DNA of 64,000 nucleotides, from contig NZ_JAGQEE010000001.1 of NCBI RefSeq assembly GCF_018304945.1, positions 1 through 64,000 of the forward strand, in the 5' to 3' direction. Position 1 is the stretch's first letter. Each line of letters starts with the position of its first letter. The translations under genes were made by a program, and so were the position numbers. Below are positions 1,395 to 63,900 of the stretch, piece by piece. The notes under the pieces are model-generated. The model ran no database searches, was not told the origin of the DNA, and saw only the letters and a program-made list of their open reading frames with translations. This stretch comes from Collimonas humicola. Its GTDB lineage: Bacteria > Pseudomonadota > Gammaproteobacteria > Burkholderiales > Burkholderiaceae_D.

Positions 1395-1409
1395 GCGGGG
1401 TCATGCCGC

Positions 1410-1445: not shown

Positions 1446-1452
1446 GCGATCG

Positions 1453-2919: not shown

Positions 2920-3277
2920 GTCATGAATGAAACGGGAATGATCTGCGTGCCTGTGCGCTGACAGCATGACTCGGCGGTCTGCATTGGGGCATGCGTAAAA
3001 CAGATAGCTTTACGAGTTAAATTTATTGCATGCGATGGGTGGCGTGCGGGGCGTCTGCCGTTTCCAAGCGCAAAAGAATATAGCTGCTGGTTTTCCGTTT
3101 TGCTAGCTATAAAAAGTGACAGCTGGTTTAAAGCGGCAATCGGTGTTAGGCGGTTTTTGCGAAGGCGGGGAGAATTGCTTCCAGCTGATTGCGGGAGAGC
3201 CACGTTGTGTCGCGGTGCATGGGATGCGCCTGGCGCGCTTGCTGCATGTCGCTGGGCCAGGCACTGGAGCGGCACCG
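2920..3277. other. Intergenic, no gene recognised
   Basis: About 360 bases, more AT-rich than the flanking genes, upstream of the truncated C-domain gene and downstream of the thioesterase. No convincing gene, RNA or clear terminator seen. Confidence 0.5.
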
Positions 3278-3808: not shown

Positions 3809-4004
3809 GTTCTCTCCTGTTGATCTGGTGATTTGACGGGCCGCGCCATTATGCCTTGCCGGCTCGAACGTTGCTGCCGACCGCTGCGGGCGGTCGTTTT
3901 GGAATGCTGCTCTGCACGATGGGTATTGATTGTAGACAGGTCTGTATATGTGTACCATTGAGATAACAAAAGAGCACGACCGTGCGTTTATTTAAGGAGA
4001 TGTG

Positions 4005-4982: not shown

Positions 4983-4990
4983 GGGCCGCG

Positions 4991-5947: not shown

Positions 5948-5970
5948 GCCAGGAGAAAATCCCTTTAGGC

Positions 5971-5998
5971 CGTCATTCCCGCGTTCGCGGGAATGACG
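5971..5998. repeat. Palindromic intergenic repeat (CGTCATTCCCGCG type)
   Basis: Perfect 28-base inverted repeat: CGTCATTCCCGCG, TT at the centre, then its complement. It lies between the convergent foldase and RND permease genes and could stop transcription from both sides. Related copies are at 46875-46945. Confidence 0.8.
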
Positions 5999-6051
5999 GG
6001 GTCGCCTAGACGGGGTCGCCAAGACCGGGGCATGGCCGAGGATGTGAGAAT

Positions 6052-9180: not shown

Positions 9181-9195
9181 GACGCGTCGTGTCCC

Positions 9196-49545: not shown

Positions 49546-50442
49546 TTACCCTGCGTCCTGCCGTCCTGAAGCGGCTTCCAGCAAATCGGCGAAGGTCTTG
49601 GCGAACAGGTGGACGTCGCCCGGCCAGCGGGCCGAAACGTAATTGCCATCCGTGACCACGAATGCCGGCCGGCTGTCGCCGCCGCTGTCGCGGAACAGGC
49701 CGCTGCTCTTGCGGAAGAAATCCGGCGCCGCCGGGCTGGCGTCGAGGAAGTCGCCGGGCTGCGCCAGGGCGCGGCTGACCTCGGCCTGTACGCTGCGGTA
49801 GCCGGCCGCCTCGCCGCTTTGCTCAACATAGGTGCGGTAGTAGGCCGGGTCCCAGCAGCGGCCGCAAAATCTCATCAGATTCCAGGCAGTCCGTTCCAGC
49901 TTCCATGTGAGCGCAGTGGTCTTGCGTCCGAACAGCGCTGATTTGCCGCTGCGCGGCGAGCGGCTGCGGGCGGCCAGCACGACGCCGTGGCAGATGGCGG
50001 CGACCGGCTTGCCGCTGTCGAAAAAGGCGCCGACGAAATCCTGCAGCGGCTGGCTTTCCAGGTAAGCCAGCATGCCGCGCGCGCGATGGCCGCCGGGCAG
50101 CAGCAGACCATCGTAGTCGGCCTGCCGCAGTTCGACGTAACTCAGCGGCGCCAGAAATGCGCGCTCGCTTTGCAGCGCCGCATAGTCGGCGCGGGCGGCG
50201 GCGTTGGCACGCAGCGCCAATCCGAGCAGCTTCAGCTTTTTCAGCAAGGGAATGCAGCCCCACATGTCGAGGCCTTCGCCGGACAGCATCAGCGGATCGG
50301 CTGCGGCGGCGCGGCCGTCGGGCGTGGCAAAGATCACGCGGTGTCCCCGCGCGCTAAGGATGCGCCAGGAGGCCGCTACTTCGCTTGGATCGAAGTCCAG
50401 ATTGGGAACCGGGATCAGCACGGTTTTTTGAGAGGGATTCAT
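49546..50442 (-). CDS. DJ-1/PfpI-superfamily protein
   Basis: A 298-residue class I glutamine-amidotransferase-like protein of the DJ-1/PfpI type. It begins KTVLIPVPNLDFDPSEVAASW, has the Glu-containing region and nucleophile elbow AAICHGVVLAARS (Cys). The C-terminal part binds as a long extension (~100 residues) with FVVTDGNYVSARWPGDVHLF. Related proteins are chaperones, glyoxalase III or proteases. The precise function is not readable. Same strand as and probably cotranscribed with the PIN gene. Confidence 0.87.
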   Translation of the reverse strand: MNPSQKTVLIPVPNLDFDPSEVAASWRILSARGHRVIFATPDGRAAAADPLMLSGEGLDMWGCIPLLKKLKLLGLALRANAAARADYAALQSERAFLAPLSYVELRQADYDGLLLPGGHRARGMLAYLESQPLQDFVGAFFDSGKPVAAICHGVVLAARSRSPRSGKSALFGRKTTALTWKLERTAWNLMRFCGRCWDPAYYRTYVEQSGEAAGYRSVQAEVSRALAQPGDFLDASPAAPDFFRKSSGLFRDSGGDSRPAFVVTDGNYVSARWPGDVHLFAKTFADLLEAASGRQDAG

Positions 50443-50797
50443 CGCTCAGATCATAGCCGAATGTCATGGCCTATCGGTTGTTGAAGGAGCGGTGCTGCGC
50501 GATGCGACGCTCATCTGCGATTCCGCCGCATCGCCAGGAATGCTTGCCTGCCGGTGCTTCAGGCAGGCATGGATAGTATCGGAAGCGCATCTTCTGACAT
50601 GGATTTTCATATGGGACAACTACAAACATTAGTAGGATGACAGCTGTATTTTTTGGTTCTAGACTCCGAAAAATTAAATAATAAGCAGTTTTTCCAGTGG
50701 CAAGTGAAATTCCGGGGAGGGACAAGCTGAACGGCGCATGAGAGCTTGGGTCCCTAATTTTTATGGTCCTAATCAGAAGAAGCTAGAAAAACAAGCT
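50443..50797. promoter_or_regulatory. Intergenic region upstream of the polyketide-like operon
   Basis: About 355 bases between the divergent DJ-1/PfpI gene and the first biosynthetic gene, AT-rich near 50620-50700. It must hold the promoter of the whole 13-kb operon, as no other sizeable gap exists downstream. No regulator gene is adjacent and no operator was recognised. Confidence 0.5.
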
Positions 50798-51952
50798 ATG
50801 CGCCCATCGATTCTTTTAACCGGAGCAACAGGTGCGCTTGGCAGCGCTCTGCTGCCAGAGCTGCTGTCTGATTTCGATCAGCACGATATATATTGCCTGG
50901 TCCGTGGCAATTCTGCCGAAGACGCCCGGCAACGACTGGCGGCAATCCTCTCGAACGCCGGATTGACAGCAGACAGCTGTGCAAGGGTGAAGCTGCTGCA
51001 CGGCGACGTCTCGGCCCCGCAACTCGGGCTGGCGCCACAGGCATACAGCGAAATTCTATCCAGCGTCGAGCAGATTTACCATCTCGCCGCCAGTGTCGAT
51101 TTCGATCTTCCCTTGTCCGTCTCGCGCCAGGCCAACGTCGACAGCGCGATCCAAATCCTCGATTTTTCCCGCCGATGCAGATATCACTCGGCCGCGCAAT
51201 TCCGCCTCAACTATGTCTCGACCGCCTATGTCTGCGGCAAACGCGACGGCCTTCTCAAGGAATCCGAGCTGGGGCTCGGCCAGGAATTCTGGAATAGTTA
51301 CGAGCAAAGCAAGCTGGAAGCTGAGCAACTGGTCGAGCTGGCAAAGGCGCAAACCGCGATCACCATCTATCGTCCAAGCCAGATCGTCGGAGATTCGGGC
51401 AGCGGCAAGATCAACAAGTTCTTCGGTTTCTATGAATTCATCGGACTGGCCGCGCGCGGACGTTCGGATATCCTGGTGGCCGATCCCGGCATGCGCGCCG
51501 ACATGGTGCCGCTGGATTACGTATGTTCCGCGATACGGCATTTTTCCCGTCAGAGCGCGGCGATCGGCCAGACTTATCATCTGGTCGCCGGACTGCGGCA
51601 CAGCATCACGGTCGACCAGGTAGTCGACGCCGTCCTCGGGGTCATGCGTGCGGCCAACGAAAGCGTCGCCGTCGCTCGCCCAAGAATCATCCCTCTTGAG
51701 CGCCTGGAAACCGACACCACAGCCCTGCAACTGGCGCGCTACAACGCCAGCGCGCAAAAACTCCTGCTTAGGACCTACCAGCCGTACCTGGCCTATGAGC
51801 GCGATTTCGATTGCGGCGCGACCCAGCAGCTGTTGCAAGCCGCCGGCATCTCGATTCCATGCATGGAAAGCGTGATCAAGGTAACGACGCAGTATGCGCT
51901 GTCCTTTCGAACCAGAAAGACGCGCGGCACGACCCCGGCATCAGTCCAATAA
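50798..51952 (+). CDS. SDR oxidoreductase, thioester-reductase-like
   Basis: A 384-residue extended SDR. Cofactor motif LLTGATGALGSALL (residues 6-19), the NVDSAIQILDF core, STAYVCGKRDG (Ser141/Thr142) and the catalytic Y168-EQS-K172. This is the NAD_binding_4 (fatty acyl / thioester reductase) fold. In a cluster with an acyl carrier protein it is likely to cut the finished chain from the carrier as an aldehyde or alcohol. Its start is uncertain: ATG 50798 gives the Rossmann motif at the usual distance, while an upstream in-frame ATG at 50738 would add 20 residues. First gene of the operon. Confidence 0.85.
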   Translation: MRPSILLTGATGALGSALLPELLSDFDQHDIYCLVRGNSAEDARQRLAAILSNAGLTADSCARVKLLHGDVSAPQLGLAPQAYSEILSSVEQIYHLAASVDFDLPLSVSRQANVDSAIQILDFSRRCRYHSAAQFRLNYVSTAYVCGKRDGLLKESELGLGQEFWNSYEQSKLEAEQLVELAKAQTAITIYRPSQIVGDSGSGKINKFFGFYEFIGLAARGRSDILVADPGMRADMVPLDYVCSAIRHFSRQSAAIGQTYHLVAGLRHSITVDQVVDAVLGVMRAANESVAVARPRIIPLERLETDTTALQLARYNASAQKLLLRTYQPYLAYERDFDCGATQQLLQAAGISIPCMESVIKVTTQYALSFRTRKTRGTTPASVQ

Positions 51953-51984
51953 AACCCTTCATTACACAGAAAGAGAGAAAGCCA

Positions 51985-52314
51985 GTGAGCCTTACCAACA
52001 AGACACAGGTGGAACAAAAGGTTGCTGCAATCCTGCGCAAGATGCTGTCGATTGAAGACGATATCGTGCTCGATGTGAATGCCGACCTGGTGCAGCAGAT
52101 CGGGCTGGACTCGATCGAGGCGTTTGATGCCGTCGCCACCTTGCACGAGATTATCGGCGAGGCTATCCCGAATACCTTCAATCCGAAGATCAGCAATTCG
52201 ATTGGCCTGCTGAGCGAATACGTGATCCAGCAGTTCGGCGAAGCAGGCGTCGCCAAATTGCTGGCGGTGAACGTCGACGAGCTCGATCTTTCCCTCTCCG
52301 ACGACGAGCTGTAA
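51985..52314 (+). CDS. Acyl carrier protein
   Basis: A 109-residue carrier protein starting at GTG 51985 (AGAGAGAAAG upstream). The phosphopantetheine site is LDSIEAFD with Ser43; the preceding helix TQVEQKVAAILRKMLSI fits helix I. It has a ~25-residue C-terminal extension (NVDELDLSLSDDEL, acidic) beyond the standard ACP, possibly a docking tail. It carries the growing chain for the following dehydratase, ketosynthase and reductase. Stop overlaps the dehydratase start (TAATG). Confidence 0.9.
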   Translation: MSLTNKTQVEQKVAAILRKMLSIEDDIVLDVNADLVQQIGLDSIEAFDAVATLHEIIGEAIPNTFNPKISNSIGLLSEYVIQQFGEAGVAKLLAVNVDELDLSLSDDEL

Positions 52315-52745
52315 TGGCAGAGAGTTTCGACCGCGCGGAGATTGAAGCGCTATTGCCGCACCGCTCGCATGCGCTGTTCATCGCCGATGCCGTGGTGGAT
52401 GGGGCGCAGGTGAGCGGCCACGCCGGCTGGGAGGTTTCGCATCCGCATCTGAGCGGGCATTTTCCAGGAAATCCGATTGTGCCGGGCGTCTTCCTCATCG
52501 AGGCAGGCGCGCAGCTGGCAGGGGTCTGGATTGCCGCGGGCAATCGCCAGCAGGCCGGGCTTGGCATGCTGGCCGGCGTCAAGCGCGTTTTGATTCACAA
52601 ACCGGTAGTCCCCGGCGACCGCCTCAGTTTCGAACTGACGGTCAGCCATGTTTCCGCGAATTTCTTCGACGCCGCCGGCGTCGCCGTGTTCGCGGATGGC
52701 GCAAAGGCCATCACGCTTCGTATCACCATTGCAGTTCTTACCTAA
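52314..52745 (+). CDS. 3-hydroxyacyl-ACP dehydratase (FabZ-like)
   Basis: A 143-residue hotdog dehydratase. The active site is SGHFPGNPIVPGVFLIEAGAQ, with His49 and Glu63, as in FabZ. It removes water from 3-hydroxyacyl-ACP to give a trans-2-enoyl chain. The start overlaps the ACP stop. Full catalytic set present; no second, inactive dehydratase partner is visible. Confidence 0.92.
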   Translation: MAESFDRAEIEALLPHRSHALFIADAVVDGAQVSGHAGWEVSHPHLSGHFPGNPIVPGVFLIEAGAQLAGVWIAAGNRQQAGLGMLAGVKRVLIHKPVVPGDRLSFELTVSHVSANFFDAAGVAVFADGAKAITLRITIAVLT

Positions 52746-52784
52746 TCGGCACTGAGAGCCCGATGGCTTCTCGGAGGAACATAC

Positions 52785-54017
52785 ATGACAAGTAATCGCG
52801 TTGTAGTAACGGGCATCGGAGTGGTTTCCCCATTTGGCGTCGGGCTTGAGGCCTATTGGAATGGCCTGCTGCAAGGCGAGACTGAAATCGGCGTGGTGCC
52901 GACATTCTCCGCCGACCGCTTTCGCAGCGTACTTGGCGCCCAGGTGCCTGCGGCGGCGGTGCAAGGCCTGGCGGCGCTGGCGGTGGACAACAAGCCTTTC
53001 GACAAAGGCGCGCTATTCGCCTCGTTTGCCGTCGACGAGGCGCTGCGCATGGCTGGCGTCGGCCCTGTATTTGGCAGCGAGCAGCGGGTCGGCTGCGTGC
53101 TGGGATCCCTGTGCGCCGGGATTGACAACCTGATCATGGTCGCAGAGTCTTACCACGAAGGCCAGGAACTGGCCGCCGATTTCCCGTACGACGCAGCGCT
53201 GGTCAACTATCAGCTTGAATATCTTTCCAGGAAACATAATCTGACCGGACCGACCAGCATAGTCTCGACCGCGTGCGCATCGACTACCGATGCTATCGGC
53301 TATGGCATGGACCTGATCCGCCACCAGGAATGCGATGCCGTCATTGTCGGCGGCGGCGATATCCTGGCAGAGCTGATCCATGCCGGCTTCAACGCGCTTT
53401 ACTCGATCACCAATTCCACCCCGCGGCCCTTCGATACCCGGCGCGACGGCTTTGCCATCGGCGAGGGCGGCGGCATCCTGTACCTGGAATCGCTGGAGAG
53501 CGCAACCCGGCGCCAGGCCAGGATCTACGCAGAAATCTCCGGCTACGGCTTGAGCAATACGGCGTTCCACCTGACCGCGACGTCCAACGACGGCGTTGGC
53601 GAAGCCCTGGCGATCGAACGCGCGCTTGACGACGCCGGCTTGGCGCCGCACCAGGTCGACTATATCAATACCCATGGCACCGCCACGGTCCACAACGACC
53701 GCTCCGAAATGAAAGCGATCAACAAGGTTTTCGGAGAGCACGCGCAACGCATCATGGCCAGCTCCAACAAGCCGCTGATCGGACATTGCATGGGGGCGGC
53801 CGGCATCATGGAGGCGATCAGCACGGTGATGGCGCTGGAAACGCAGATAGTGCCGGCGACGCCGTTTACGTCGGGAGACGAGTCTGAGCTTTCATTCGAT
53901 CTTGTCAAGAATCAGCCAAGGCCAGCCAAGCTGGTGCACGCCATTTCACAATCGTTCGGATTCGGCGGCGCCTGTTCATGCGTGGTGTTTAGCAAGCCGG
54001 AATATAGGGGAGTCTGA
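52785..54017 (+). CDS. Beta-ketoacyl-ACP synthase (ketosynthase, FabF-like)
   Basis: A 410-residue KAS-II-type ketosynthase with the complete triad: Cys164 in VSTACASTTDA, His297 in NTHGTATVHNDRSE, His334 in LIGHCMGAAG. It condenses an acyl chain with malonyl-ACP. It is directly followed, with no gap, by a ketosynthase-like protein lacking these residues, the arrangement of KS and chain-length factor in type II polyketide synthases. GGAGG lies upstream of the ATG. Confidence 0.95.
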   Translation: MTSNRVVVTGIGVVSPFGVGLEAYWNGLLQGETEIGVVPTFSADRFRSVLGAQVPAAAVQGLAALAVDNKPFDKGALFASFAVDEALRMAGVGPVFGSEQRVGCVLGSLCAGIDNLIMVAESYHEGQELAADFPYDAALVNYQLEYLSRKHNLTGPTSIVSTACASTTDAIGYGMDLIRHQECDAVIVGGGDILAELIHAGFNALYSITNSTPRPFDTRRDGFAIGEGGGILYLESLESATRRQARIYAEISGYGLSNTAFHLTATSNDGVGEALAIERALDDAGLAPHQVDYINTHGTATVHNDRSEMKAINKVFGEHAQRIMASSNKPLIGHCMGAAGIMEAISTVMALETQIVPATPFTSGDESELSFDLVKNQPRPAKLVHAISQSFGFGGACSCVVFSKPEYRGV

Positions 54018-55217
54018 ATGGAGCGCGTTGTCATCACAGGAATCGGCGTGGTCGGGCCGCATGGTACCGGACTCGAACCGATTTTCAATCATCCCGGCGA
54101 CCTGGCGCTGCCATTCGCACCTTGGCCGGAAGCCATCGATCCGCCGCACCGGCAGGCCAGGATCGCCCAGGTCACCGACTATCCGGTGAAGCGCTTTTTT
54201 ACCGAACGCCAGATACGGTTGATGGACCGCGCCATGGCGCTTTCATCCACCGCTGCCGGGCTGGCGATCGAAAACGCCGGCCTGAGCGACGCCGAACGCC
54301 TTGAAGCGTGCACATTCCTTGGGACCGCGCGGGCCGAATTGCCTTCCTGCTATCAGTTCATCCAGCCCCAGCTGGGGCAGCAGAAAACGCAGCTCAATGC
54401 CGCCGATTTTCCCAAGATTGCAAGGAATGTCGCCTGCGGCCAGGTAGCGATCCGCTATCGCATGCAAGGTCCCAGCACCGTCCTTGCCTCGGGATCGCTG
54501 GCTTCCGTCGAGGCGCTGGCGCGCGCCGCCCATTACATCCGGGTCGGCCGTTCCAAGGTGGCGCTGGTCGGCGGCTACGAGTCCTTGTCCAAGTTTTCGC
54601 TGTACTTTTTGCGGCGCCTGTATGCGTCCCACCTTGCCGCCGGCAAGCCGCAGTTTTTTGGCACACAGCCGGGCTATCTGGTGCCTTCCGAAGGATCATG
54701 CATGCTGGTGCTGGAATCGGCAGCGCATGCCGAAGCACGCGGCGCCGCGGCGTATTGCTCGGTCGATGCCTGGGATGCAGGCCGCTTCGGCGCCGATTTT
54801 TCCGCCGGCCAGGCGCTCGAAGACAGCTGGGCGCGTGCGCTGGCGCGGGCCGGCAATACGCCGGCAAGCCTGGGGCTGATCAGCGCTGCTTCGGGTGGAG
54901 CCAACCGTACGCATGAGCTGGCCGAGCGCAGCGCCCTGAACGCCTTTTTCGAGAAAAATCCAGGCGCGGCGGCGCAGGTGCATACGCCAAGGTCACTGGT
55001 CGGCGAAGGTGAATCGTGGGCCTCGGCGCTGCAGGTGGCGATGGCGGCGTTCATCTTGAAGCATGGACGCAGTCCGGCTACGCGCAATGTGGCGGAAGAC
55101 GTGCCGGCGCAATTCCACAAGCGCTTGCATGACGACGATATTTCGCATCGCAGCGCCTTGGTCTCGGGCGTCGGTTCAGGCGGAAATTTCTGTTCCATCC
55201 ACCTGTCGCGTCCGTAA
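54018..55217 (+). CDS. Ketosynthase-like protein without catalytic residues (chain-length-factor-like)
   Basis: A 399-residue thiolase-fold paralogue of the preceding ketosynthase, starting on the base after its stop. At the nucleophile position it has GPSTVLASGSLAS, with Ser160 where Cys164 sits in the partner. The first His motif is replaced by SAASGGANRT and the second by SLVGEGESWAS, so no Cys-His-His triad remains. The N-terminal motif VVITGIGVVGPHGTG and C-terminal GVGSGGNFCSIHLS show the fold is intact. By analogy with type II PKS it should dimerise with the active KS and set chain length. It lacks the active-site Gln typical of classical CLFs, so this is an inference. Confidence 0.85.
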   Translation: MERVVITGIGVVGPHGTGLEPIFNHPGDLALPFAPWPEAIDPPHRQARIAQVTDYPVKRFFTERQIRLMDRAMALSSTAAGLAIENAGLSDAERLEACTFLGTARAELPSCYQFIQPQLGQQKTQLNAADFPKIARNVACGQVAIRYRMQGPSTVLASGSLASVEALARAAHYIRVGRSKVALVGGYESLSKFSLYFLRRLYASHLAAGKPQFFGTQPGYLVPSEGSCMLVLESAAHAEARGAAAYCSVDAWDAGRFGADFSAGQALEDSWARALARAGNTPASLGLISAASGGANRTHELAERSALNAFFEKNPGAAAQVHTPRSLVGEGESWASALQVAMAAFILKHGRSPATRNVAEDVPAQFHKRLHDDDISHRSALVSGVGSGGNFCSIHLSRP

Positions 55218-55312
55218 GACGGCTGGCAGCTGGGGCGCCCGGGATGGCGGTGGCAGGAACCCGGGTTCTGCGGTTGCCGGAAAACTAAAAAACATCGAGA
55301 AAAAGATCTTCT

Positions 55313-56083
55313 ATGAATATCGCTGCACGCCCTCAAAAGGCGGTCCTCGTTACCGGCGGAAGCCGCGGCATAGGCCGCGCCATCTGCGCCGCCATGGCCG
55401 ATCCGGCCATGCCCGTTTTCGTCAACTATGCGCGCAACCCGCAAGCCGCAGAGGAAACCTGCGCCGTGGTGGCGGCGGCCGGCGGCAAGGCATTTGCCGT
55501 CCAGGCAGATGTCTCGGATCATGAGCAGGTGCAGCGGATGTTCCTGTCCATCCGGGAGCAAGGTTACTGGGTGCATACGCTGATCAACAATGCCGGCATT
55601 GTCGCCGATACGATCGCGGCGTCGATGTCGATAGAGCAATGGCGTTCGGTCCTGGCTACCAACCTGGACGGCAGCTTTTTCTGCATCCGGACCGCGCTAT
55701 CGACCATGTCTGCCCGCAAGAGCGGGCGCATCGTCAACATTGCTTCGGTGAGCGGCATCAAGGCGCAGCCCGGCCAGGTCAACTACGCTGCCTCGAAAGC
55801 CGGGGTAATGGCGCTCACCCGTGGCCTGGCGCGCGAGCTTGGACGCTATGGCGTGCGGGTCAATGCGGTTGCGCCGGGCTTCATCGAGACCGAAATGCTG
55901 TCCGATTTGCGCAGCAGCGAAAAAGGCGAGGAATTCCTGCAGCAGACCGCGGCGGCCGCAATTCCTTTGGGGCGGCTCGGCCAACCTGAGGAAATCGCCT
56001 CGGTGGTGCGCTTCCTGTGTTCCAAGGCGGCGAGCTATGTCACAGGACAGGTGATTACAGTTGATGGAGGCCTAAGTGTCTGA
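55313..56083 (+). CDS. 3-oxoacyl-ACP reductase (FabG-like)
   Basis: A 256-residue SDR ketoreductase: NADP motif [13 protein letters not shown] (residues 11-23), NNAG at 92-95, catalytic Ser145/147, Tyr158 and Lys162 in NYAASKAG, and C-terminal GQVITVDGG. It reduces the 3-keto group made by the ketosynthase. Its 3' end overlaps the next gene by 8 bases. Complete catalytic set. Confidence 0.94.
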
Positions 56084-58148
56084 TCTGAGCATCGTTGATA
56101 AAAATACCAAGCCGCTGCTGAACCGTTTCTTTTCGCCGATCCGCATCAACGGCATGGAAATGGAAAACCGCTCCTTGATGAGCTCCATTCATTTGAACCT
56201 GGAAGATTTCGAAGACCAGTTCGAACGCATGGCCTACTTTTACGCAAAGCGCGCCGCCGAAGGCGTTGGCCTGATTGTCACCTCGGGCTGCTCGCCGGAT
56301 GTGCCGGGCATGTTCGCGGTCAAGGGTTTTTCCCTGAAAGAGGATGCGGAGATCGCCTCGCATCGCATCATCACTGATGCCGTGCACCAGAAAGGCGGCA
56401 AGATCGCATTGCAGATCATGCATTTCGGCCGCGAGGCGGTGCACGGCAATATCGTGTCGTCGTCCAATCGCAAGCTGGCGTCGAGTCTGTTTACGCCGAA
56501 AGCCTTGGAAGAGCCTGAGATCCTTGCCATCATCGACGCCTTTGCCGCTTGCGCGCAGCGCGCCGTGGATGCCGGCTACGACGCGATAGAACTGATTTTT
56601 TCGCAGGGCTTCCTGGTGCATCAGTTCCTGGCGCCGGCCTGCAACAACCGCACAGACGCCTGGGGTGGAAGTTTCGACAACCGCAGCCGCCTGGCCACGG
56701 AAATTGCAAGGCGCGTGCGGGCCAGGGTCGGCCCGGATTACCCCATCATTTTCCGCGTTCCCTGCATGGATCTGCTGACCGGCGGCATCACCGAAGACGA
56801 GTCGATCGAACTGATCCGCCGCCTGCTGCCATTCGGCGTCGATCTGCTGAGCGTGAGCATCGGCTGGCACAATTCCGATGTGCCGACGATTGCGATGGTG
56901 GTGCCGCGTGCCGGCTTTGCGTCGGCGACGCGGCTGGTGCGCGACAACTTTCCCGACCTGAAGATTTGCATCAGCAATCGTATCAACGACCCGCGCGTGG
57001 CGGAGTCGCTGCTGATAGACGGCGGCGCCGATGTGATCGCCATGGCCAGGCCGTTCCTGGCCGATGCGGCGTTGGTCAGCAAAGCCAGGCGGAATGCTTT
57101 CGACCAGATCAATCCGTGCATTGCCTGCAACCAGAACTGCCTCGACTATGTGTTTTCCGGCCAGCCGGTCGGTTGCAGTGTCAATCCCGAAGCAGTGCAG
57201 CCAGATGAGGGCGTTTACGCCGCTCTGCCGCGCAAGCAAAAGGTCGCCGTGGTCGGCGGCGGCATCGCCGGCATGGGCTCGGCGCTATTCCTGGCGCGGC
57301 GCGGTGCGGCCGTCGATCTTTTCGAAGCCGGCAGTTCGCTCGGCGGGCAGCTGAGGCTGGCGGCCAGGATTCCGGAAAAGGATGAATTTCTGGGAACCGT
57401 GCGCTATTACACGCAAGCCGTTATCGAGGCCGGGGTGAAGCTGCATCTGGGTACGGAGTTCGGTGCGGCGCAGCTGGCGCAGGGCTACGATCATGTCGTC
57501 ATCGCCACCGGATGCGCCACGCGTCATCCCGGGAATCTGCCGGGCGCGGATCTGCCGCATGTGATCCAGTACAGCGACGTGCTGGAAAACAGCTGCCCGG
57601 TCGAACATCCGGTGGTGATTATCGGCGGCGGCGGAGTCGCCTGCGACGTGGCGAAATATCTGATGAAAACCAAGAATAGCCTGCGCAGCGCGGCGCATTC
57701 CTATCTGAACTTGAAGGTGGCCGACGACAGCCTGTCCAAATATCTGGCAGCCGATACCAGCAGCGCGGCATCGGTGACCCTGCTGCAGCGTTCGAGCCGC
57801 AAGTTCGCATTCAGGCTTGGCCGCACCACGCGCTGGATCCAGATGGCCGATATGGAACGCCTGAATGTCAGCATGCGCAACAAGGTGGACATCATCGCCA
57901 TAACCCGTGACGGCGTTGAGATATTCAACCGCGCCACCAAGGTCAGCGAAATCGTGCCGGCCAGGACAGTGGTGCTGGCGGTCGGCCATGAGCCCAGGCT
58001 GCAGCTGCTTGAACTGCTTGAAAAAGCCAAGATCAGGCACTCCGTGGTGGGTTCGGCGGCGACAGAAGGCGACGTAGCCAGGCGCACCAACATCAGCTCG
58101 GCGCTGGGCGACGCCTATCAGATGGCGCTTTCTTATGCGGACAGGTGA
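56076..58148 (+). CDS. FadH-like (2,4-dienoyl reductase / OYE-type) Fe-S flavoenzyme
   Basis: A 690-residue enzyme starting at GTG 56076 (GGAGG 5 bases upstream). Residues ~15-345 form an old-yellow-enzyme FMN barrel ([24 protein letters not shown]; EHxLR region). Cys348, 351, 355 and 367 (CIACNQNC..C) bind a 4Fe-4S cluster. The C-terminal half has FAD/NADH domains ([14 protein letters not shown] near 388; [17 protein letters not shown] near 510). FadH reduces 2,4-dienoyl-CoA, using electrons from NADPH through FAD, Fe-S and FMN. Here it may act as the enoyl or dienoyl reductase of the ACP-bound chain, setting the number and position of double bonds. Confidence 0.9.
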
Positions 58149-58154
58149 GGCGCC

Positions 58155-58262
58155 ATGGAGACCGTGCAATCGATCCTTGGCCGCCGACCGGATATCGCCG
58201 GCGGCGCTGCATATGCGTGTGTTCGATGTGTCGATGACCGACTGATTCCGTCCTGTCCATGA
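58155..58262 (+). CDS. Possible small peptide gene coupled to the desaturase
   Basis: A 35-codon frame starting ATG 6 bases after the flavoenzyme stop, ending TGA that overlaps the ATG of the desaturase. It has three Cys (CVRC, PSCP) and no recognisable family. The overlap could mean translational coupling, but no strong ribosome binding site precedes it and the frame could be chance. Confidence 0.3.
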   Translation: METVQSILGRRPDIAGGAAYACVRCVDDRLIPSCP

Positions 58263-59155
58263 TGCTGCCCATTCTTCCTTTTCCCCGCGTGCGGCGCGCG
58301 TTCAAGGTTACTGCGCTGTTTGTCCACCAATGGCTGTGGCTGGGCATTTTTGCCGTCCCGTTCCAGCTGTCGCTGCTGGCGCCCTGTGTCATATTGGGTT
58401 TTTTGCTGATTCTTGGGGTGGAGCTTGGGCACCATCGTTATTTCTCACATCGCAGCTTCCGCACCGGCCGGGTGTTCCAGTTCGTGCTGGGGGTCTGGGC
58501 GACCGCGGCGTTCCAGCGCGACGTGCTTTGGTGGGCCAGCATGCATCGGCTGCATCACCGCTTTTCCGATACCCCCAACGACCCGCACAGCCCGTATGCC
58601 GAAAATGCCGGCGGCTACTGGCATGCGCATCTGGTGTGGGCCGTCGTCAAGCGCAACGCCGAAGTCGATCAGCGCGGCATTCCCGACCTGCTTGCTTATC
58701 CGGAGCTGCGCTGGCTTGGGAACTGGCATTACCTGATCAGCATTGCCCTCGCCGCAATCTGCTATTCCCTGGGGGCGAGCGGGCTGGCGGGAACGTCTGG
58801 CTGGCAGACGCTGATATGGCTGTACGTGATGCCGGTATTCATTTGCCAGCACGTGATCAGCTGCCAGGCAACGTTTGCGCATGCCGCGCCGCGCTTGCCG
58901 GGAGCCTATCGTTCATTTGAGACAGACGACGAATCAGTCAATCATCTGCTGATGGGCCTTGTCAGCAGCGGCGGCGGCTTTCATAACAATCACCATCGGT
59001 TTCCCGGTTCCGCGCGCCTGGGGCTGAAGCCCGGCGAATTCGACATCACCTATCTGGTCATCAGGGTCTTGCACAGGCTGGGCATCGTGCACAAGGTGAC
59101 GATCCCGCGCGCGGTGCTGAGTTACATAAAAGAACAGCGCGAGCCGCGGCCCTGA
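58259..59155 (+). CDS. Membrane fatty acid desaturase (acyl-CoA delta-9 type)
   Basis: A 298-residue membrane desaturase with all three His boxes: H59RYFSH64, H96RLHH100 and H242NNHH246. About four hydrophobic helices flank them. It inserts a cis double bond into a long acyl chain using two iron ions, oxygen and an electron donor, at the cytoplasmic side of the inner membrane. In this operon it probably modifies the product chain, as the housekeeping desaturase would not be placed here. ATG 58259 or 58262. Confidence 0.92.
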   Translation: MMLPILPFPRVRRAFKVTALFVHQWLWLGIFAVPFQLSLLAPCVILGFLLILGVELGHHRYFSHRSFRTGRVFQFVLGVWATAAFQRDVLWWASMHRLHHRFSDTPNDPHSPYAENAGGYWHAHLVWAVVKRNAEVDQRGIPDLLAYPELRWLGNWHYLISIALAAICYSLGASGLAGTSGWQTLIWLYVMPVFICQHVISCQATFAHAAPRLPGAYRSFETDDESVNHLLMGLVSSGGGFHNNHHRFPGSARLGLKPGEFDITYLVIRVLHRLGIVHKVTIPRAVLSYIKEQREPRP

Positions 59156-59232
59156 TTGCGGCGCGCGGGATCTTGCCCCGCGATCGCCCCGGAGCTGTGG
59201 TCCATGCATCTTGAATTGAAGGAGGTTTCACC

Positions 59233-60084
59233 ATGTCAGCATCAGAAGGCACATACCCGGTACGCAAGCTGAGCATCGATTTTGCGGCCAAATCCAATCG
59301 CTACTGGTTCAAGAACCGGCCTTTTGAGACGCATTGGTTCAACGCGCTGTCGTTCGGCATTGTTCCGGCCGAACGGTTTGCGATCTCCTGCATCAAGGAC
59401 AGCTTGCCGCTGGTGCAGGAAGAGACCCTGAAGGCGGAAGCCCGCGCTTTCATCGGCCAGGAATCGACGCACAGCTTTTTACATGCGAAATGCAATGCTG
59501 AGCTGGAACGGCAGGGCTATCGCTTTTTCCTGCATCGCTATTGCGAATGGCGCCTGTCCAAGGCGCATTGGCTGAGCCGCCTGAGCGGACTGGCGCTGAC
59601 AGCATGCTGGGAACACATCACCGCGATCATTTGCGAACACACCTTGTCCCGCTTCGATATTTTCAAGGACGCCGAAGATCCGTTCTGCGCGCTATGGACC
59701 TGGCATAGCGCCGAAGAACTGGAGCATAAATGCCTGGCGCACGATCTGTATATCGGCACTGCGGGGGGCTATCCCTTGAAGATCGGCTGGCTGCTTTACG
59801 GCACGGCCCTGTTCGTGACCGATTTTGCAACACAGACCGCGCACAATATGTATCGCGACGGCCGCCTGTTCGATCCGAGGGTCTGGCTGGGCTGCCTGCG
59901 CTATTTTTTTGGACGGCAGGGCTTGTTCTGGTTTGCGTTTCCGCGCTGGCTGGCATTCATGCATCCGCGCTTTCATCCCGGCGATGTCGACAACCGTGCC
60001 CTGAGTGCGTTCGCGCTGGAGCAGCTGAAGACGCGCCTGAAAGTTGTTGGTCCACCTGTGGCAAGCCATGGCGCCGCGGATTAG
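59233..60084 (+). CDS. PF10118 'metal-dependent hydrolase', probable ferritin-like diiron oxygenase, copy 1
   Basis: A 283-residue protein of the PF10118 family. Residues line up with a helical diiron centre: Glu47, E77-S-T-H80 (GQESTHSFLH), Glu127 or Glu135, and E162-L-E-H165 in WHSAEELEHK. The order E, ExxH, E, ExxH is the canonical ferritin-like diiron set. Several hydrophobic stretches follow (LLYGTALFVTDFA), so the protein may be membrane-associated. The family is named as a hydrolase by prediction only. AAGGAGG lies 7 bases upstream. A second copy is at 62969. Confidence 0.85.
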   Translation: MSASEGTYPVRKLSIDFAAKSNRYWFKNRPFETHWFNALSFGIVPAERFAISCIKDSLPLVQEETLKAEARAFIGQESTHSFLHAKCNAELERQGYRFFLHRYCEWRLSKAHWLSRLSGLALTACWEHITAIICEHTLSRFDIFKDAEDPFCALWTWHSAEELEHKCLAHDLYIGTAGGYPLKIGWLLYGTALFVTDFATQTAHNMYRDGRLFDPRVWLGCLRYFFGRQGLFWFAFPRWLAFMHPRFHPGDVDNRALSAFALEQLKTRLKVVGPPVASHGAAD

Positions 60085-60397
60085 CGGCGGGGCGGCCGGC
60101 ATTGTGCTGCATCCTGTCCTGTTCATGAGCGTGCCGCTGGATGGCTTGCGCCTGCCGCAGGGCGCTCTGACCGCGGCGACCCGTGTCGACACCGGCTACG
60201 GCGCGGTGTGGATCGCCGATCTGCCAGGCGCCGCGGAGCAGAGCGCGTGCGTGGCCTCGCACCGCGCCTTCGATTCGATCGAGGTGGTGTGCAGCGCGCC
60301 GGTTCGCGCGCTGCTGAGCCACCGGCCCGGAGCGCTAACTGTCTCGTGGGTCGATCAGGCGCCGGCCGGGCATCAGATCATGCAACCTTGTCGCTAA
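60068..60397 (+). CDS. Small protein of unknown function in the polyketide-like operon
   Basis: A 109-residue protein whose start overlaps the end of the preceding PF10118 gene by 17 bases. It is largely beta-type in appearance (LFMSVPLDGLRL, AAVTR..VDTGYGAVWIADL, FDSIEVVCSA) with two Cys and no known motif. It could be a pathway-specific accessory factor. A shorter start at 60125 is possible. Gene status is supported by overlap and position, not by family. Confidence 0.55.
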   Translation: MAPRISGGAAGIVLHPVLFMSVPLDGLRLPQGALTAATRVDTGYGAVWIADLPGAAEQSACVASHRAFDSIEVVCSAPVRALLSHRPGALTVSWVDQAPAGHQIMQPCR

Positions 60398-60419
60398 CTT
60401 TCAATCAGCAGATACGCAC

Positions 60420-61583
60420 ATGACAACTCAAATCACGATGGTTCAGTCTCACAAGAATCTCCGGCGTCTATTGTGGCTGCTCAGCCCGCTGGTGCCGCTG
60501 ACGGCGCTGTTTTATCTATGGGCCGGCCACCATAGCGGGCATGGCATCTGGTACTGGGCCTTGTTGATAGCGATCTATGTCGTGGTGCCGCTGGGCGACT
60601 GGCTGGGCGGCCTGGACACCAGCAATCCGCAAGCCGGCGAGATGGAAAGGATGGATCGCGACGCCTTCTATCGCATCATCGTGTACGCCTTTGTACCGAT
60701 CCAGATAGCGGTGGTGGTGCTCGGAGCATGGATCTACGCCAGCACGCCGTTGGCTGCCTGGGAAGTTGCGGGAATGGCGCTGAGCGTCGGCACGGTCAAC
60801 GGCCTGGCGTTCATTGCAGCCCACGACCTGCTGCACAAGAAGCAGCCCGTTGAGCGCTGGCTTGCCAAGCTGGTCCTGGCGCCCACCGTTTATGGCCATT
60901 TTTTTGCGGAGCATGTACGAGGGCACCACAAGAATGTGGCGACGCCGGGCGATCCGACCAGTTCCATGATGGGCGAGACGTTCTGGAGCTATCTGTTGCG
61001 CGCAATTGTTTCCGGCGTCGCCTCAGCCTGGCGCATCGAGCGCGAGCGGCTGGCGCGGGAAGGGCGCAGCGTGTGGAGCTGGTCCAATGAAAACCTGCAT
61101 TCATGGGCCATGACTGCCGTGATGTTTGCGGCACTGAGCGTGTGGCTGGGACCGGGAGTGCTGGTATTCCTGATGCTGCAGGCGTTCTACGGCATTGTCT
61201 TGCTGGAAGTGACCAACTATATAGAACACTACGGCTTGCTGCGGAAAAAGCTGGCGGACGGAAGCTATGAGCGCTGTTCGCCGGCCCATGCCTGGGTCAG
61301 CAATCATGTCGTTTGCACCTTGTTCCTGTACCAGCTGCAAAGGCATGCCGACCATCACATCCATCCTTCCCGCAGCTATCAAACCTTGCATCATCATGAA
61401 GGAACGCCGCAGCTGCCGGCCAGCTATGTGACGCTGATGCTGGTCGCCTATCTGCCGCCGCTATGGTTCCGGCTGATGGATCATCGGGTCTTTCAGCACT
61501 ATCGCGGCGATCTGACCGTTGCGCATCTCGATCCGCGCAAGCGCAACGCCCTGCTGGCCCGCAGCTATGGAGACGAGGCATGA
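60420..61583 (+). CDS. AlkB-type alkane / fatty acid omega-hydroxylase
   Basis: A 387-residue integral-membrane diiron monooxygenase. All AlkB signatures are present: H135DLLHK, E164HVRGHH170, NYIEHYGL (266-273) and LQRHADHHIHPSRSYQ (306-321). Six hydrophobic helices fit the fold. AlkB adds a terminal hydroxyl to medium-chain alkanes or alkyl chains using rubredoxin-delivered electrons; no rubredoxin gene is adjacent. Finding it inside a carrier-protein pathway suggests it hydroxylates the product tail. Stop overlaps the next start. Confidence 0.93.
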   Translation: MTTQITMVQSHKNLRRLLWLLSPLVPLTALFYLWAGHHSGHGIWYWALLIAIYVVVPLGDWLGGLDTSNPQAGEMERMDRDAFYRIIVYAFVPIQIAVVVLGAWIYASTPLAAWEVAGMALSVGTVNGLAFIAAHDLLHKKQPVERWLAKLVLAPTVYGHFFAEHVRGHHKNVATPGDPTSSMMGETFWSYLLRAIVSGVASAWRIERERLAREGRSVWSWSNENLHSWAMTAVMFAALSVWLGPGVLVFLMLQAFYGIVLLEVTNYIEHYGLLRKKLADGSYERCSPAHAWVSNHVVCTLFLYQLQRHADHHIHPSRSYQTLHHHEGTPQLPASYVTLMLVAYLPPLWFRLMDHRVFQHYRGDLTVAHLDPRKRNALLARSYGDEA

Positions 61584-62881
61584 GAAGCGCCAAAGATTAC
61601 TGCAGCTATGTAGGCAATGCCTATTTCATGGCGATGGACAGCCTGGGGAGCAATACCGATATCGTCGTCACCTGCGATCTCAAGCGGGCTGTACCGGTTG
61701 AAACGGCTGTCAAGGCGTTCCAGGAATTGCTGGCCGGGCATGAGGCGCTGCAGCGGCTGCGCTCGCGGGCGCCCGCTGCGGCAAGCTGGGAATGGCTGGC
61801 TGCGCCGGAGCAGGCGTGGCGGCAGGACTGGGAGCTTATCCGGAACGAGTTGCTGGAGACCGGCATTGCGCCGGCCGCGCTTCATCCAGCTTGCAGGCTG
61901 CCGTTCCGTCTGTTCGAATGCAGCGAACTGAAACTGGTGTTCCGGGTGGAGCATACTTTTGCCAACGGCCGCGGCAGCTACGCATGGCTGGAACGGTATT
62001 TCTCCTTGCTGTCGGCAAGCCAGGGGCTGGCGGCGCCCGAACCAGCGCCCGCCGGCCAGGCAGAGATCGCCGACGATGCGCCATTGCGCCTGGCCTTGCT
62101 GCATGCCGCCGCATCATTGTTTCGCCGCAAGCGGATCCTGCGGGGAAGCAGTGATATGCGGCTGCCGCTGTTGCGGCAGTCGCGTTCACCGCTCTTCAGC
62201 TTTCATGCAGAAAGATTTGTCCTATCGGATCGAGAGGTCAGCGCGGCGTTTCTGCGTCACCGTGCCGCGGGAGAAAGCTATACGCAGACGTTGACGCGGC
62301 GTCTCTCCGAGCAGGTCCTTGCCGATTACCCCGCCTTGCGTGGCGTCGGCGTGCAGGTAGCCGCGGACTTGCATCGCCATTGCGGGATCGATCTTTACGA
62401 GGTCGGCAATTTTACCGGCCTGATAACCGGCTACATAGAGCGGCGGTTGCCAGCGCTGGAACAAACGGCGGCCTTGTTCAAGCGGATACGAGGCGGTGCT
62501 GCGCCCGGCTTCAGCAAGCTGTTCGCACAGGTAATGCCGAATCGCCTGAAGCTGGTGCGCTGGTTCCGGGGGCAATGCCGCAGCGCGCTGGAAGATGCCG
62601 GCGAACTCATGATGGACCCGCTGTTCACCGTCTCCAACATGGGCAACATCGAAGGGCCGCACACCTGCTTATGGCTGGCGGCCACGTCGCTGCGCACCTC
62701 GATGCCGTCTGTCTATGTGTCGGCGACCCGGATCGGCGAGTGGACGGCTTTTGAAGTTGTTTTTCCGGATAATATTTTCGACCGGCAAAAGATCCGCGCG
62801 CTGATGCTGCGCTTCTTCGGATTCGAGCAAGGCTTGCCGCCGGACCACGCCGAGCGCGGCGCGCTGGCCGGCACGGCCTGA
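61580..62881 (+). CDS. Condensation-superfamily acyltransferase-like protein
   Basis: A 433-residue protein that resembles the CoA/carrier-dependent acyltransferase fold (NRPS C domain, PapA, wax-ester synthase). The active-site motif reads E124-H125-TFA-N129-G130, so the catalytic His stays and the usual Asp of HHxxxDG is Asn. A late block (MMDPLFTVSNMGNIEG) fits the second half of the fold. It could join the hydroxyl of the product to an acyl group or amine. The start overlaps the AlkB stop by four bases. Family assignment by motif and length only. Confidence 0.72.
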   Translation: MRSAKDYCSYVGNAYFMAMDSLGSNTDIVVTCDLKRAVPVETAVKAFQELLAGHEALQRLRSRAPAAASWEWLAAPEQAWRQDWELIRNELLETGIAPAALHPACRLPFRLFECSELKLVFRVEHTFANGRGSYAWLERYFSLLSASQGLAAPEPAPAGQAEIADDAPLRLALLHAAASLFRRKRILRGSSDMRLPLLRQSRSPLFSFHAERFVLSDREVSAAFLRHRAAGESYTQTLTRRLSEQVLADYPALRGVGVQVAADLHRHCGIDLYEVGNFTGLITGYIERRLPALEQTAALFKRIRGGAAPGFSKLFAQVMPNRLKLVRWFRGQCRSALEDAGELMMDPLFTVSNMGNIEGPHTCLWLAATSLRTSMPSVYVSATRIGEWTAFEVVFPDNIFDRQKIRALMLRFFGFEQGLPPDHAERGALAGTA

Positions 62882-62968
62882 GCCAGGCGGGTAGCTGCCG
62901 CGGTGCTTGCGCGGCAATGGATTTCTTGCCGAATATTGCGTATTTATTGAGCATTGATATTGATTTTT

Positions 62969-63826
62969 ATGAACCCAGACAGCGCAAAAAAAATGATCCC
63001 CAGGCGTATCGAACTACGCATCGACGACGGCTTCGATATCAACTGGAATGGTGGCGATGCCTATCGAAGCCAGCTGTTCAACGCGGTATCGATGTTGTTC
63101 CCGGTTGGCGAAAAATGGATTATCGATACCGTGCGACGAGTGGTCGATATCCTTCCTGCGGCAGAAAAGGCAGCCTGGGCCGGCAGCACGAGGGATTTCA
63201 TCGCGCAAGAGTCGATACACAGTTCGGTGCATCGCAAATACAATGATCACCTCAAGCATCAGGGGCTGCGCAACTGGCTGGAACTGCGCGCCAAGCGACG
63301 CATGGAGTGGGGCGGCAAGGGTACGCCGATCAACCAGCTGGCGTCGTCGGTGGCCTATGAATACCTGACAGCCAACCTGTCCTCCTCGCTGCTGTGCACG
63401 CCGCGGCTGCTCGAAGGCGCCGACGCGCGGCTGGCAAATGTGTGGCGCTGGCATTCAGCGGAAGAGCTTGAGCACAGGCATTTCGTGCTGGACCTGTATG
63501 AGGCGGCGGGCGGTGGCTATGTGCGGCGCCTGCTGTGGTACGTGTGGGCCTTGTCGACTTTCATGCTGGACTTGCACATCCAGGTTTTCTTGAATCTGCG
63601 CGATTCGCGGCAGCTATTCAAATGGTCGACCTTGGGCCAGGCGCTGCGCTTCAATTTCTGGCCGGGCGGCATGTTCTGGACCATCTCGGCCGCGTCTGTC
63701 AAGTTTTTGAATCCGACATACCATCACAGGGACGACCTTGGCGACCAGATCGCCAGGGCATGGCTCGCCGACAATGCCGCCAGCTTCAGGGACGCCGATA
63801 AATTTCCCGACGCGCGAGGATCGTGA
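62969..63826 (+). CDS. PF10118 'metal-dependent hydrolase', probable ferritin-like diiron oxygenase, copy 2
   Basis: A 285-residue paralogue of the protein at 59233. The same ligand pattern is kept: Glu48, E81-SI-H84, Glu131, and E166-LE-H169 in WHSAEELEHR. Overall similarity to copy 1 is moderate, with different N-termini, so the two enzymes probably act at different positions or stages. It is the last gene of the run and its start at 62969 is separated by 87 bases from the previous gene; TTG 62954 is a less likely start. Confidence 0.84.
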   Translation: MNPDSAKKMIPRRIELRIDDGFDINWNGGDAYRSQLFNAVSMLFPVGEKWIIDTVRRVVDILPAAEKAAWAGSTRDFIAQESIHSSVHRKYNDHLKHQGLRNWLELRAKRRMEWGGKGTPINQLASSVAYEYLTANLSSSLLCTPRLLEGADARLANVWRWHSAEELEHRHFVLDLYEAAGGGYVRRLLWYVWALSTFMLDLHIQVFLNLRDSRQLFKWSTLGQALRFNFWPGGMFWTISAASVKFLNPTYHHRDDLGDQIARAWLADNAASFRDADKFPDARGS

Positions 63827-63900
63827 GTTAACAGGCCCTAGACATCCGGCGATTCTGTCCATAAGCTTCGGGGTAGTCAAATTCATGGAAAATCATTGCG

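What the first reader, a model, noticed from the sequence alone, without database searches (positions are those of the whole stretch)
50798..63826. Dissociated, highly reducing type II polyketide-like operon with heavy iron-dependent tailoring
Seen: about 13 same-strand genes, several overlapping by 1-17 bases, encoding SDR reductase, ACP, FabZ, KS, KS-like partner, FabG, FadH-like reductase, desaturase, two PF10118 proteins, AlkB, a condensation-like protein and a small unknown. Known: KS/CLF + KR + DH + ACP sets make polyenes in highly reducing type II PKS pathways. Inference: an enoyl/dienoyl reductase, a desaturase, an AlkB and two diiron proteins would give a partly reduced, multiply oxidised chain, released by thioester reduction or ester formation. 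I know no described pathway with this gene set.
Basis: partly seen in the sequence, partly recalled or inferred. Interest (0 to 1): 0.9.

Follow-up and report, generated by a model that had tools for sequence, protein, structure and literature searches.

The report
Rare oxidised-lipid type II polyketide operon
A 13-gene bacterial operon, found here in only two species, looks built to make a partly unsaturated fatty chain, oxidise it with four enzymes of iron-dependent families and release it as an aldehyde or alcohol; my searches found no described pathway with this gene set.

Summary
Thirteen + strand ORFs (50738/50798-63826) form one compact unit: a ketosynthase with complete active site, a full-length partner that has lost Cys-His-His, KR, DH, ACP, a FadH-like reductase, a desaturase, a genuine AlkB, two PF10118 proteins and a thioester reductase. 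It is an island: 13 readable congeners lack it, and 11 of them have near-full DJ-1 and GNAT matches side by side at this site. The only close relative found is in Pseudoduganella rivuli FT92W: 12 shared genes, 41-71% identical, tail rearranged, one more PF10118 gene, also near tpiA-nuo.

Corrections: the 'small unknown' is best read as the C-terminal remnant of a phosphopantetheinyl transferase gene. PF10118 is more likely a dimetal oxygenase than a hydrolase: invariant E/ExxH/E/ExxH pattern, confident all-helical model, best (not significant) fold matches to dimetal oxidases. The 'condensation-like' protein has no supporting family match, only short motifs. The FadH-like enzyme has Phe for catalytic Tyr166 in both species.

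Best reading: a highly reducing type II PKS variant making a linear, partly reduced, multiply oxidised aldehyde, alcohol or ester. The product is unknown.

The parts
50798..51952 (+). Thioester reductase-like SDR (NAD_binding_4); ORF opens at 50738, likely start 50798
   Evidence: PF07993 197 bits; TIGR01746 168 bits, below its cut-off of 213; PDB 4u7w, named MxaA, 107 bits; TGxTGxxG and YxxxK present
51985..52314 (+). Acyl carrier protein (GTG start), GLDS motif
   Evidence: PF00550 22 bits; GLDSI in window and P. rivuli
52314..52745 (+). FabZ-type dehydratase
   Evidence: PF07977; FabZ equivalogs 80 and 77.5 bits, below cut-offs 113 and 155
52785..54017 (+). Ketosynthase with Cys-His-His
   Evidence: PF00109/PF02801; TACAS, HGTAT, GHCMGA; FabF equivalog 353 of 494 bits
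54018..55217 (+). Full-length KS-like partner (CLF-like), all three catalytic positions lost
55313..56083 (+). FabG-type ketoreductase
   Evidence: PF13561; TIGR01830 271 of 298 bits; TGxxxGIG, YAASK
56076..58148 (+). FadH/BaiCD-like flavin/Fe-S ene-reductase; Tyr166 and Glu164 of FadH replaced by Phe and Gln, His252 and Fe-S Cys kept
   Evidence: 488 bits to E. [quoted passage not shown] same residues in P. rivuli
58259..59155 (+). Membrane acyl desaturase with three His boxes
   Evidence: PF00487 62 bits; acyl-CoA desaturases 4ymk/4zyo 80/78 bits; HRYFSH, HRLHH, HNNHH
59233..60084 (+). PF10118 protein a (ferritin-like dimetal pattern)
   Evidence: 205 bits; QESTH and EELEH; alignment A4
60044..60397 (+). 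Remnant: C-terminal piece of a phosphopantetheinyl transferase gene (core missing)
   Evidence: aligns in order to the two pieces of the P. rivuli gene: score 86 against the C piece (maximum of 300 shuffles 44), 52 against the N piece (maximum 54, not significant alone)
60420..61583 (+). AlkB alkane 1-monooxygenase-like hydroxylase
   Evidence: 462 bits to 8f6t; HDLLHK, EHVRGHH, NYIEHYG, LQRHADHH
61580..62881 (+). Orphan protein with HxxxNG and SNxG motifs, perhaps acyltransferase-like; start chosen at 61580
   Evidence: no Pfam, NCBIfam or relevant PDB match for the window protein; 41% identical P. rivuli homologue; in 1 of 321 class genomes, its own
62954..63826 (+). PF10118 protein b (ferritin-like dimetal pattern)
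   Evidence: 175 bits; model pLDDT 91.5; Foldseek best rows R2lox and AurF, none significant
50426..63886 (.). Extent of the island relative to the empty site of the nearest congener
   Evidence: homology to G208 stops at 50425 and resumes at 63887; 129 bases lie between in G208

Best explanation
A sporadically distributed biosynthetic island encoding a variant highly reducing type II PKS. KS with an inactive full-length partner (CLF-like), FabG and FabZ extend and process an acyl chain on the dedicated ACP. A FadH-like flavin/Fe-S reductase removes or moves selected double bonds, giving a partly unsaturated aliphatic chain. A membrane desaturase, an AlkB hydroxylase and two ferritin-like dimetal proteins (PF10118 a and b) oxidise it; the thioester reductase releases it as aldehyde or alcohol; the orphan protein may acylate it. 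Shown here: gene set, motifs, conservation in a second species, empty site in congeners, dimetal ligand pattern. Inferred: heterodimer, order of steps, substrates, product.
For: Family assignments; catalytic motifs in both species; KS active and partner inactive by residues; 12 shared genes in P. rivuli at 41-71% identity, in each with codon positions 1 and 2 more conserved than 3; a PPTase gene split over the two P. rivuli contig ends, beside PF10118a on one and the orphan gene on the other, which ties an ACP to the unit (adjacency across the break is inferred); island absent from 13 readable congeners; KS and FabZ below housekeeping equivalog cut-offs; KS pair and CLF pair each on their own 100/100 branch; PF10118 dimetal pattern and model.
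Against: No product or expression data. The PPTase of the unit is broken in this genome, so it depends on another one (four PF01648 matches) or is decaying here. No starter enzyme, regulator or exporter was recognised among the 13 genes. The FadH-like enzyme lacks the catalytic Tyr. Fold matches of PF10118 are not significant (0 with E <= 0.001). FabG passes two broad subfamily cut-offs, so it is not distinctive. Only two species were found to carry it.
Confidence: 0.62

Rival explanations
1. A membrane-lipid or wax pathway: the KS pair is a specialised fatty acid synthase making an unusual fatty acid, alcohol or ester for membranes or storage rather than a secreted secondary metabolite; the orphan protein is a wax-ester/acyl transferase.
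For: Desaturase, AlkB and reductase families act on fatty chains in known systems (recalled); no exporter recognised in the unit; the orphan protein has HxxxNG and SNxG, recalled as resembling the HHxxxDG family.
Against: Rarity: CLF relatives only in the own genome among 294 family, 369 class and 388 phylum genomes (overlapping sets); no family match for the orphan protein.
Confidence: 0.2
2. A hydrocarbon-type pathway: the thioester reductase makes an aldehyde, a PF10118 protein deformylates it as cyanobacterial ADO does, and AlkB hydroxylates the resulting alkene.
For: Acyl-ACP reductase plus ferritin-like dimetal protein recalls AAR/ADO (abstract beginnings seen); ADO structures are among the weak fold matches; AlkB is a typical alkane hydroxylase by motif and similarity.
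Against: R2lox and AurF rank above ADO and no match is significant; no relevant PDB sequence match for PF10118a, the only one searched.
Confidence: 0.1
3. A decaying remnant: the cluster is losing function in this genome, shown by the PPTase deletion, and has no present product here.
For: PPTase core missing.
Against: The other 12 ORFs are intact with the motifs that were tested; four other PPTase matches exist in the genome.
Confidence: 0.08

Closest known systems
Highly reducing type II PKS (ishigamide Iga11-Iga12; aryl polyene ApeO-ApeC)
   Same: KS + inactive KS-like partner, KR, DH and ACP as separate proteins (passages of PMC10698177 and PMC8358021)
   Different: Carries a FadH-like reductase, desaturase, AlkB, two PF10118 proteins and a thioester reductase; [quoted passage not shown] KS nearer FabF (265 bits) than 6kxd (183 bits), recalled as the Iga KS
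Cispentacin AmcF-AmcG (type II PKS-like)
   Same: KS beside a degenerate partner, with a DH-like enzyme (passages of PMC10698177)
   Different: NCBIfam AmcF 231 of 325 bits for KS, AmcE 35.5 of 140 for DH; no AlkB or PF10118 in that pathway (recalled)
E. coli FadH 2,4-dienoyl-CoA reductase
   Same: Similarity over residues 18-667 of 690, Fe-S Cys motif and His252
   Different: Tyr166 to Phe and Glu164 to Gln in both species; Tyr166/His252 are named the catalytic dyad in PMC12691678 (passage)
AlkB alkane 1-monooxygenase (8f6t, 8sbb)
   Same: All four tested His/HYG motifs, 462 and 347 bits
   Different: Sits in an apparently biosynthetic operon; no rubredoxin recognised among its 13 genes
Cyanobacterial AAR/ADO alkane pathway
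   Same: Acyl-ACP reductase with a ferritin-like dimetal enzyme (analogy only)
   Different: No PDB sequence match for PF10118a; weak fold similarity only

Membership tests
Highly reducing type II PKS | KS with catalytic Cys-His-His | tested here: met
   TACAS, HGTAT, GHCMGA in both species
Highly reducing type II PKS | Adjacent KS-like partner lacking the catalytic residues | tested here: met
   Cys to Ser (window) or Pro (P. rivuli), both His lost; genes abut at 54017/54018
Highly reducing type II PKS | KR, DH and ACP encoded with the KS pair | tested here: met
Highly reducing type II PKS | KS and CLF group with known HR type II clades | tested here: inconclusive
   Tree holds no Iga or ApeO reference by name; the KS pair joins OWN_APE_KSa (97/75) with a long-branch warning; the CLF pair stands alone on a 3.64 branch; PDB ranking puts FabF above 6kxd
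Highly reducing type II PKS | KS-CLF heterodimer and polyene-type product | not testable with these tools
   needs biochemistry
Housekeeping type II FAS (FabF, FabZ, FabG) | Scores over FabF/FabZ/FabG equivalog cut-offs | tested here: not met
   KS 353/494, partner 107/494, FabZ 80/113, FabG TIGR01830 271/298 bits; FabG does pass the broad subfamilies NF009466 (243/222) and NF005559 (218/215)
AlkB alkane monooxygenase | HxxxHK, EHxxGHH, NYxEHYG, LQRHxDHH (recalled motifs) | tested here: met
   462 bits to 8f6t
PF10118 as ferritin-like dimetal oxygenase | E, ExxH, E, ExxH on four helices | tested here: met
   E53, E86xxH89, E136, E171xxH174 invariant in 25 rows, on helices 36-65, 69-102, 125-148, 158-184 of a pLDDT 91.5 model
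PF10118 as ferritin-like dimetal oxygenase | Significant fold match to a solved dimetal oxygenase | tested here: inconclusive
   Rows 1-10 are R2lox and AurF, E 0.18-0.29, prob 0.85-0.98, TMq 0.39-0.46; 0 with E <= 0.001; unrelated helical proteins such as F-BAR domains also appear lower down
FadH 2,4-dienoyl-CoA reductase | Tyr166/His252 dyad | tested here: not met
   Tyr to Phe, His kept, in both species
Condensation / wax ester synthase superfamily | Pfam or PDB similarity, HHxxxDG | tested here: not met
   no Pfam match at E <= 10 for the window protein; the P. rivuli homologue only MR_MLE_C at E 0.016, under its cut-off; PDB only a ribosomal protein and RBL4 at E 0.23 and 0.55; motif is EHTFANG; model too poor to use (pLDDT 37)
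Sfp-type phosphopantetheinyl transferase (small ORF) | ACPS domain with catalytic core | tested here: not met
   0 families; only the C-terminal part aligns to the P. rivuli gene, whose first piece scores 24.7 bits to PF01648, just under the cut-off of 25

The most novel reading that the evidence does not exclude
A new subclass of type II polyketide synthase in which a dedicated, catalytically re-tuned dienoyl reductase sets isolated double bonds during chain growth, and a team of an AlkB hydroxylase, a desaturase and two PF10118 dimetal oxygenases turns the chain into a new kind of oxidised aliphatic aldehyde, alcohol or hydrocarbon, giving PF10118 an assignable pathway.
Probability: 0.25. 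Interest if true: 0.8.

Novelty: new variant of a known kind. Interest (0 to 1): 0.6.

Why it matters
It would extend type II polyketide chemistry from aromatic rings and conjugated polyenes to linear, selectively reduced and C-H-oxidised chains. It would also give PF10118, which Pfam still describes as 'Predicted metal-dependent hydrolase', a concrete testable role as dimetal oxygenases. AlkB, best known from alkane degradation (recalled), would here be a biosynthetic tailoring enzyme. Two natural versions of the operon, 41-71% identical per protein, offer a direct comparison.

Tried and rejected
Housekeeping FAS: judged unlikely on equivalog cut-offs and on the empty site in congeners.

Relative search in viral contigs: no relatives. 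The 28 other KS loci of the genome scan are 25-36% identical; none shows TR, FadH-like, Des, PF10118, AlkB or the orphan protein over 60 bits, so they are not this system. Plasmid records: 195 hold a CLF match, all under 60% identity, the 20 listed at 27-30%; no match for the orphan protein.

Structure of the orphan protein: a two-row alignment gave pLDDT 37, so its fold search means nothing. Profile comparison with one Streptomyces protein annotated as condensation-domain-containing: no similarity.

The tool warned of long-branch joins, so I claim only that each pair stands on its own branch.

PF10118 alignment A4: 6 rows from A3 plus 19 rows from 18 of the 27 loci L076-L102. Nine loci were left out: L086, L087 and L094 gave no ORF by my pattern, L095 repeats L084, L101 is a fusion, L077 and L080 run to a locus end, L099 and L100 were left out without a tested reason.

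Base composition of 46-64 kb gives no mark of foreign origin. Over the island, 8 promoter-like sites against a shuffled mean of 4.2 (sd 2.1) and 16 terminator-like against 13.2; before the first gene, 1 promoter-like against 0.7. No tRNA and no Rfam match in the window.

Rarity caveats: the large genome searches scored at most 4-6 candidates per genome (25), and the genome-contig scan used six exact 8-residue patterns of one KS, so more distant relatives can be missed. Paper listings were capped: 20 of 88, 12 of 26, 12 of 18.
Full report
What is there. The window is G000:C11:1-64000 of a 5.62 Mb, 24-contig genome. Thirteen + strand ORFs lie between 50738/50798 and 63826, with overlaps of 1, 8, 41 and 4 bases and gaps of 0-110 bases under the starts I chose. 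Left of them, on the - strand, is a DJ-1/PfpI gene (49546-50442). Beyond the window on the same contig are ORFs that I read as GNAT, yaaA, threonine dehydratase, tpiA and nuo genes (names are my reading of the translations, no family search was run on them). Pfam gives thioester-reductase-type SDR, ACP, FabZ-like DH, KS, KS-like partner, FabG-like KR, an OYE/Pyr_redox enzyme, two FA_desaturase proteins and two PF10118 proteins; NCBIfam agrees where it has a match. The second FA_desaturase protein is an AlkB: 462 bits to PDB 8f6t and 347 to 8sbb, both named alkane 1-monooxygenase, with all four AlkB motifs tested (motif names recalled).

Is it one functional unit? A scan of the genome collection (84,980 species by its description) with the KS gave 29 loci. 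One of 29, L036 from Pseudoduganella rivuli FT92W, is 70% identical; the other 28 are 25-36% identical, and none of these carries the tailoring genes over 60 bits. L036 holds TR-ACP-FabZ-KS-CLF-FabG-FadH-like-Des, an additional PF10118 gene, PF10118a and a gene cut by the contig end. The rest sits at the end of another contig of the same genome (G1045:C17, L069): end of that gene, orphan protein, PF10118b, AlkB. The cut gene looks like a phosphopantetheinyl transferase: PF01648 24.7 bits on the first piece (cut-off 25) and an N-terminal PPTase family 19.8 bits (cut-off 27). So 12 genes are shared at 41-71% protein identity, with the order changed at the 3' end (orphan-PF10118b-AlkB instead of AlkB-orphan-PF10118b). 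In all 12, codon positions 1 and 2 are more conserved than position 3, which fits purifying selection on protein function.

The small unknown. Window ORF 60044-60397 aligns to the end of the P. rivuli PPTase: 17 residues to the end of the first piece (score 52, maximum of 300 shuffles 54, so not significant alone) and 49 columns to the second piece (score 86, maximum 44), in order. The catalytic core is absent and no Pfam family matches. It is best read as the tail of a PPTase gene that lost its core. The genome has four other PF01648 matches, so the ACP can still be activated; one lies beside a second, aryl-polyene-like type II cluster (L075; my reading of the ORFs).

An island. yaaA was found in 15 of 15 genomes of the genus. 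The site was fetched for the 14 others. In 13 of these 14 it can be read and none shows island genes between the flanks; the 14th (L135) ends at a contig end. In 11 of the 13 a near-full DJ-1 match lies next to a GNAT match; L127 has only a fragment of DJ-1 and L129 none, with PIN next to GNAT. Distances between the flanking matches are 78-236 bases. Against the nearest congener (G208, yaaA 98% identical), homology stops at 50425 and resumes at 63887, with 129 bases between in G208. Composition does not stand out from the 4-5 kb to the left. In P. rivuli the operon has other neighbours, yet ORFs that I read as tpiA, secG and nuo lie downstream there too: tpiA about 6.2 kb after the operon against 3.0 kb in the window's contig. 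So transfer by recombination in shared flanks, or an old location with many losses, are both possible.

How rare. CLF relatives: at E <= 1e-30, 1 of 294 family genomes; at 1e-32, 1 of 369 class genomes and 1 of 388 phylum genomes (two-row profile), each time the own genome; at 1e-30, 1 of 74 in the genus of P. rivuli, itself. These sets overlap. At the looser 1e-15, 171 of 399 order genomes match, but listed rows other than the own gene are 23-31% identical, which I take as ordinary KS. The orphan protein: 1 of 321 class genomes, its own. In the large calls only the best 4-6 candidates per genome were scored.

Core chemistry. The KS keeps Cys-His-His; the partner has Ser (window) or Pro (P. 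rivuli) at the Cys and neither His. The KS scores 353 bits to the FabF equivalog (cut-off 494) and FabZ 80 of 113; the FabG-like protein passes two broad subfamily cut-offs and is not distinctive. The best PDB relatives of the KS are FabF enzymes (265 bits), then actinorhodin KS (197) and 6kxd (183) (6kxd is named only 'Ketosynthase' there and 'typical KS-CLF' in a passage; that it is the ishigamide KS is recalled). In the tree the two KS and the two partners each form a 100/100 pair; the KS pair groups with OWN_APE_KSa (97/75) and L038 (92/93), not with the FabF-like rows, but the tool warns of long branches, so I draw nothing finer. HR type II PKSs are described as KS-CLF, KR and DH acting in repeated cycles (PMC10698177, passages); the gene content fits. 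A catalogue of type II PKS clusters reports that 58% of non-actinobacterial KS-CLF regions hold FAS-FAS type pairs (PMC10132072, passages), in line with this FabF-like KS.

The reductase is homologous over nearly its whole length to E. coli FadH (488 bits). FadH uses Tyr166 and His252 as a catalytic dyad (PMC12691678, passage). In both species Tyr166 is Phe and Glu164 is Gln, while His252 and the Fe-S cysteines are kept. A 2008 paper in its reference list speaks of two distinct proton donors giving different products (title seen; details recalled, not read). I infer altered protonation, hence a different double-bond outcome; this is a guess with a clear test.

The oxidative enzymes. In 25 PF10118 proteins E53, E86xxH89, E136 and E170/E171 with H174 are invariant; they fall on four long helices of a pLDDT 91.5 model. 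This is the ligand pattern of ferritin-like dimetal proteins (recalled). Foldseek's first ten rows are R2-like ligand-binding oxidases and AurF, with aldehyde-deformylating oxygenase from row 11 and acyl-ACP desaturases lower, but none is significant (best E 0.18) and some unrelated helical proteins also appear. PF10118 genes occur in 13 of 114 class genomes. Of 20 ORFs scanned from such loci, five are FMO-like flavoproteins, one has a ferredoxin domain, one is an aldehyde dehydrogenase, and one is a PF10118 fused to an alpha/beta hydrolase; the other 12 are mixed or unmatched. The fusion could also be held for a hydrolytic setting. An oxygenase role is more likely than a hydrolase role, not proven. 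The desaturase has three His boxes and matches acyl-CoA desaturases.

The orphan protein of the window has no match in Pfam (to E 10) or NCBIfam and no relevant PDB match; its P. rivuli homologue has only a sub-threshold MR_MLE_C match, E 0.016. The motifs HTFANG and SN(M/L)G are shared with P. rivuli. 'Condensation-like' remains a motif-level hint.

Literature. Full-text searches for such a pathway, for PF10118, for P. rivuli, for the reductase and for ADO-like enzymes listed nothing with this gene set, as far as titles and abstract beginnings tell; I read passages of four papers. The library lacks most subscription journals and the listings are capped.

Verdict. It is a rare, conserved biosynthetic island and looks like a highly reducing type II PKS with unusual tailoring. 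The product, and thus the degree of novelty, is open.

Noticed in passing
L075 (G000:C11:553000-571000), 414-10013: A second, aryl-polyene-like type II cluster in the same genome: ORFs read from translations as LolA-like, MMPL-like, FAD oxidoreductase, two KS, DH, KR and a PPTase (PF01648 match at C11:562638; ORFs).
   Followed up: partly
L101:1429-3336 (-): An alpha/beta hydrolase fused to a PF10118 domain in one protein.
   Followed up: no
L077, L091, L096, L099, L100: PF10118 genes in other genomes of the class lie beside FMO-like flavin monooxygenases.
   Followed up: partly
L069:4575-9489: In P. rivuli a LolA-like gene (7508-8248) and ORFs that I guess to be an MMPL-type transporter (not searched) lie between the operon and tpiA; possibly export genes, not seen at the window site.
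   Followed up: no
L036:16197-16994: A third PF10118 gene in the P. rivuli operon, diverged from a and b.
   Followed up: no
G000:C11:185637-186386 (-): A third PF10118 gene of the window's genome, outside the operon.
   Followed up: no
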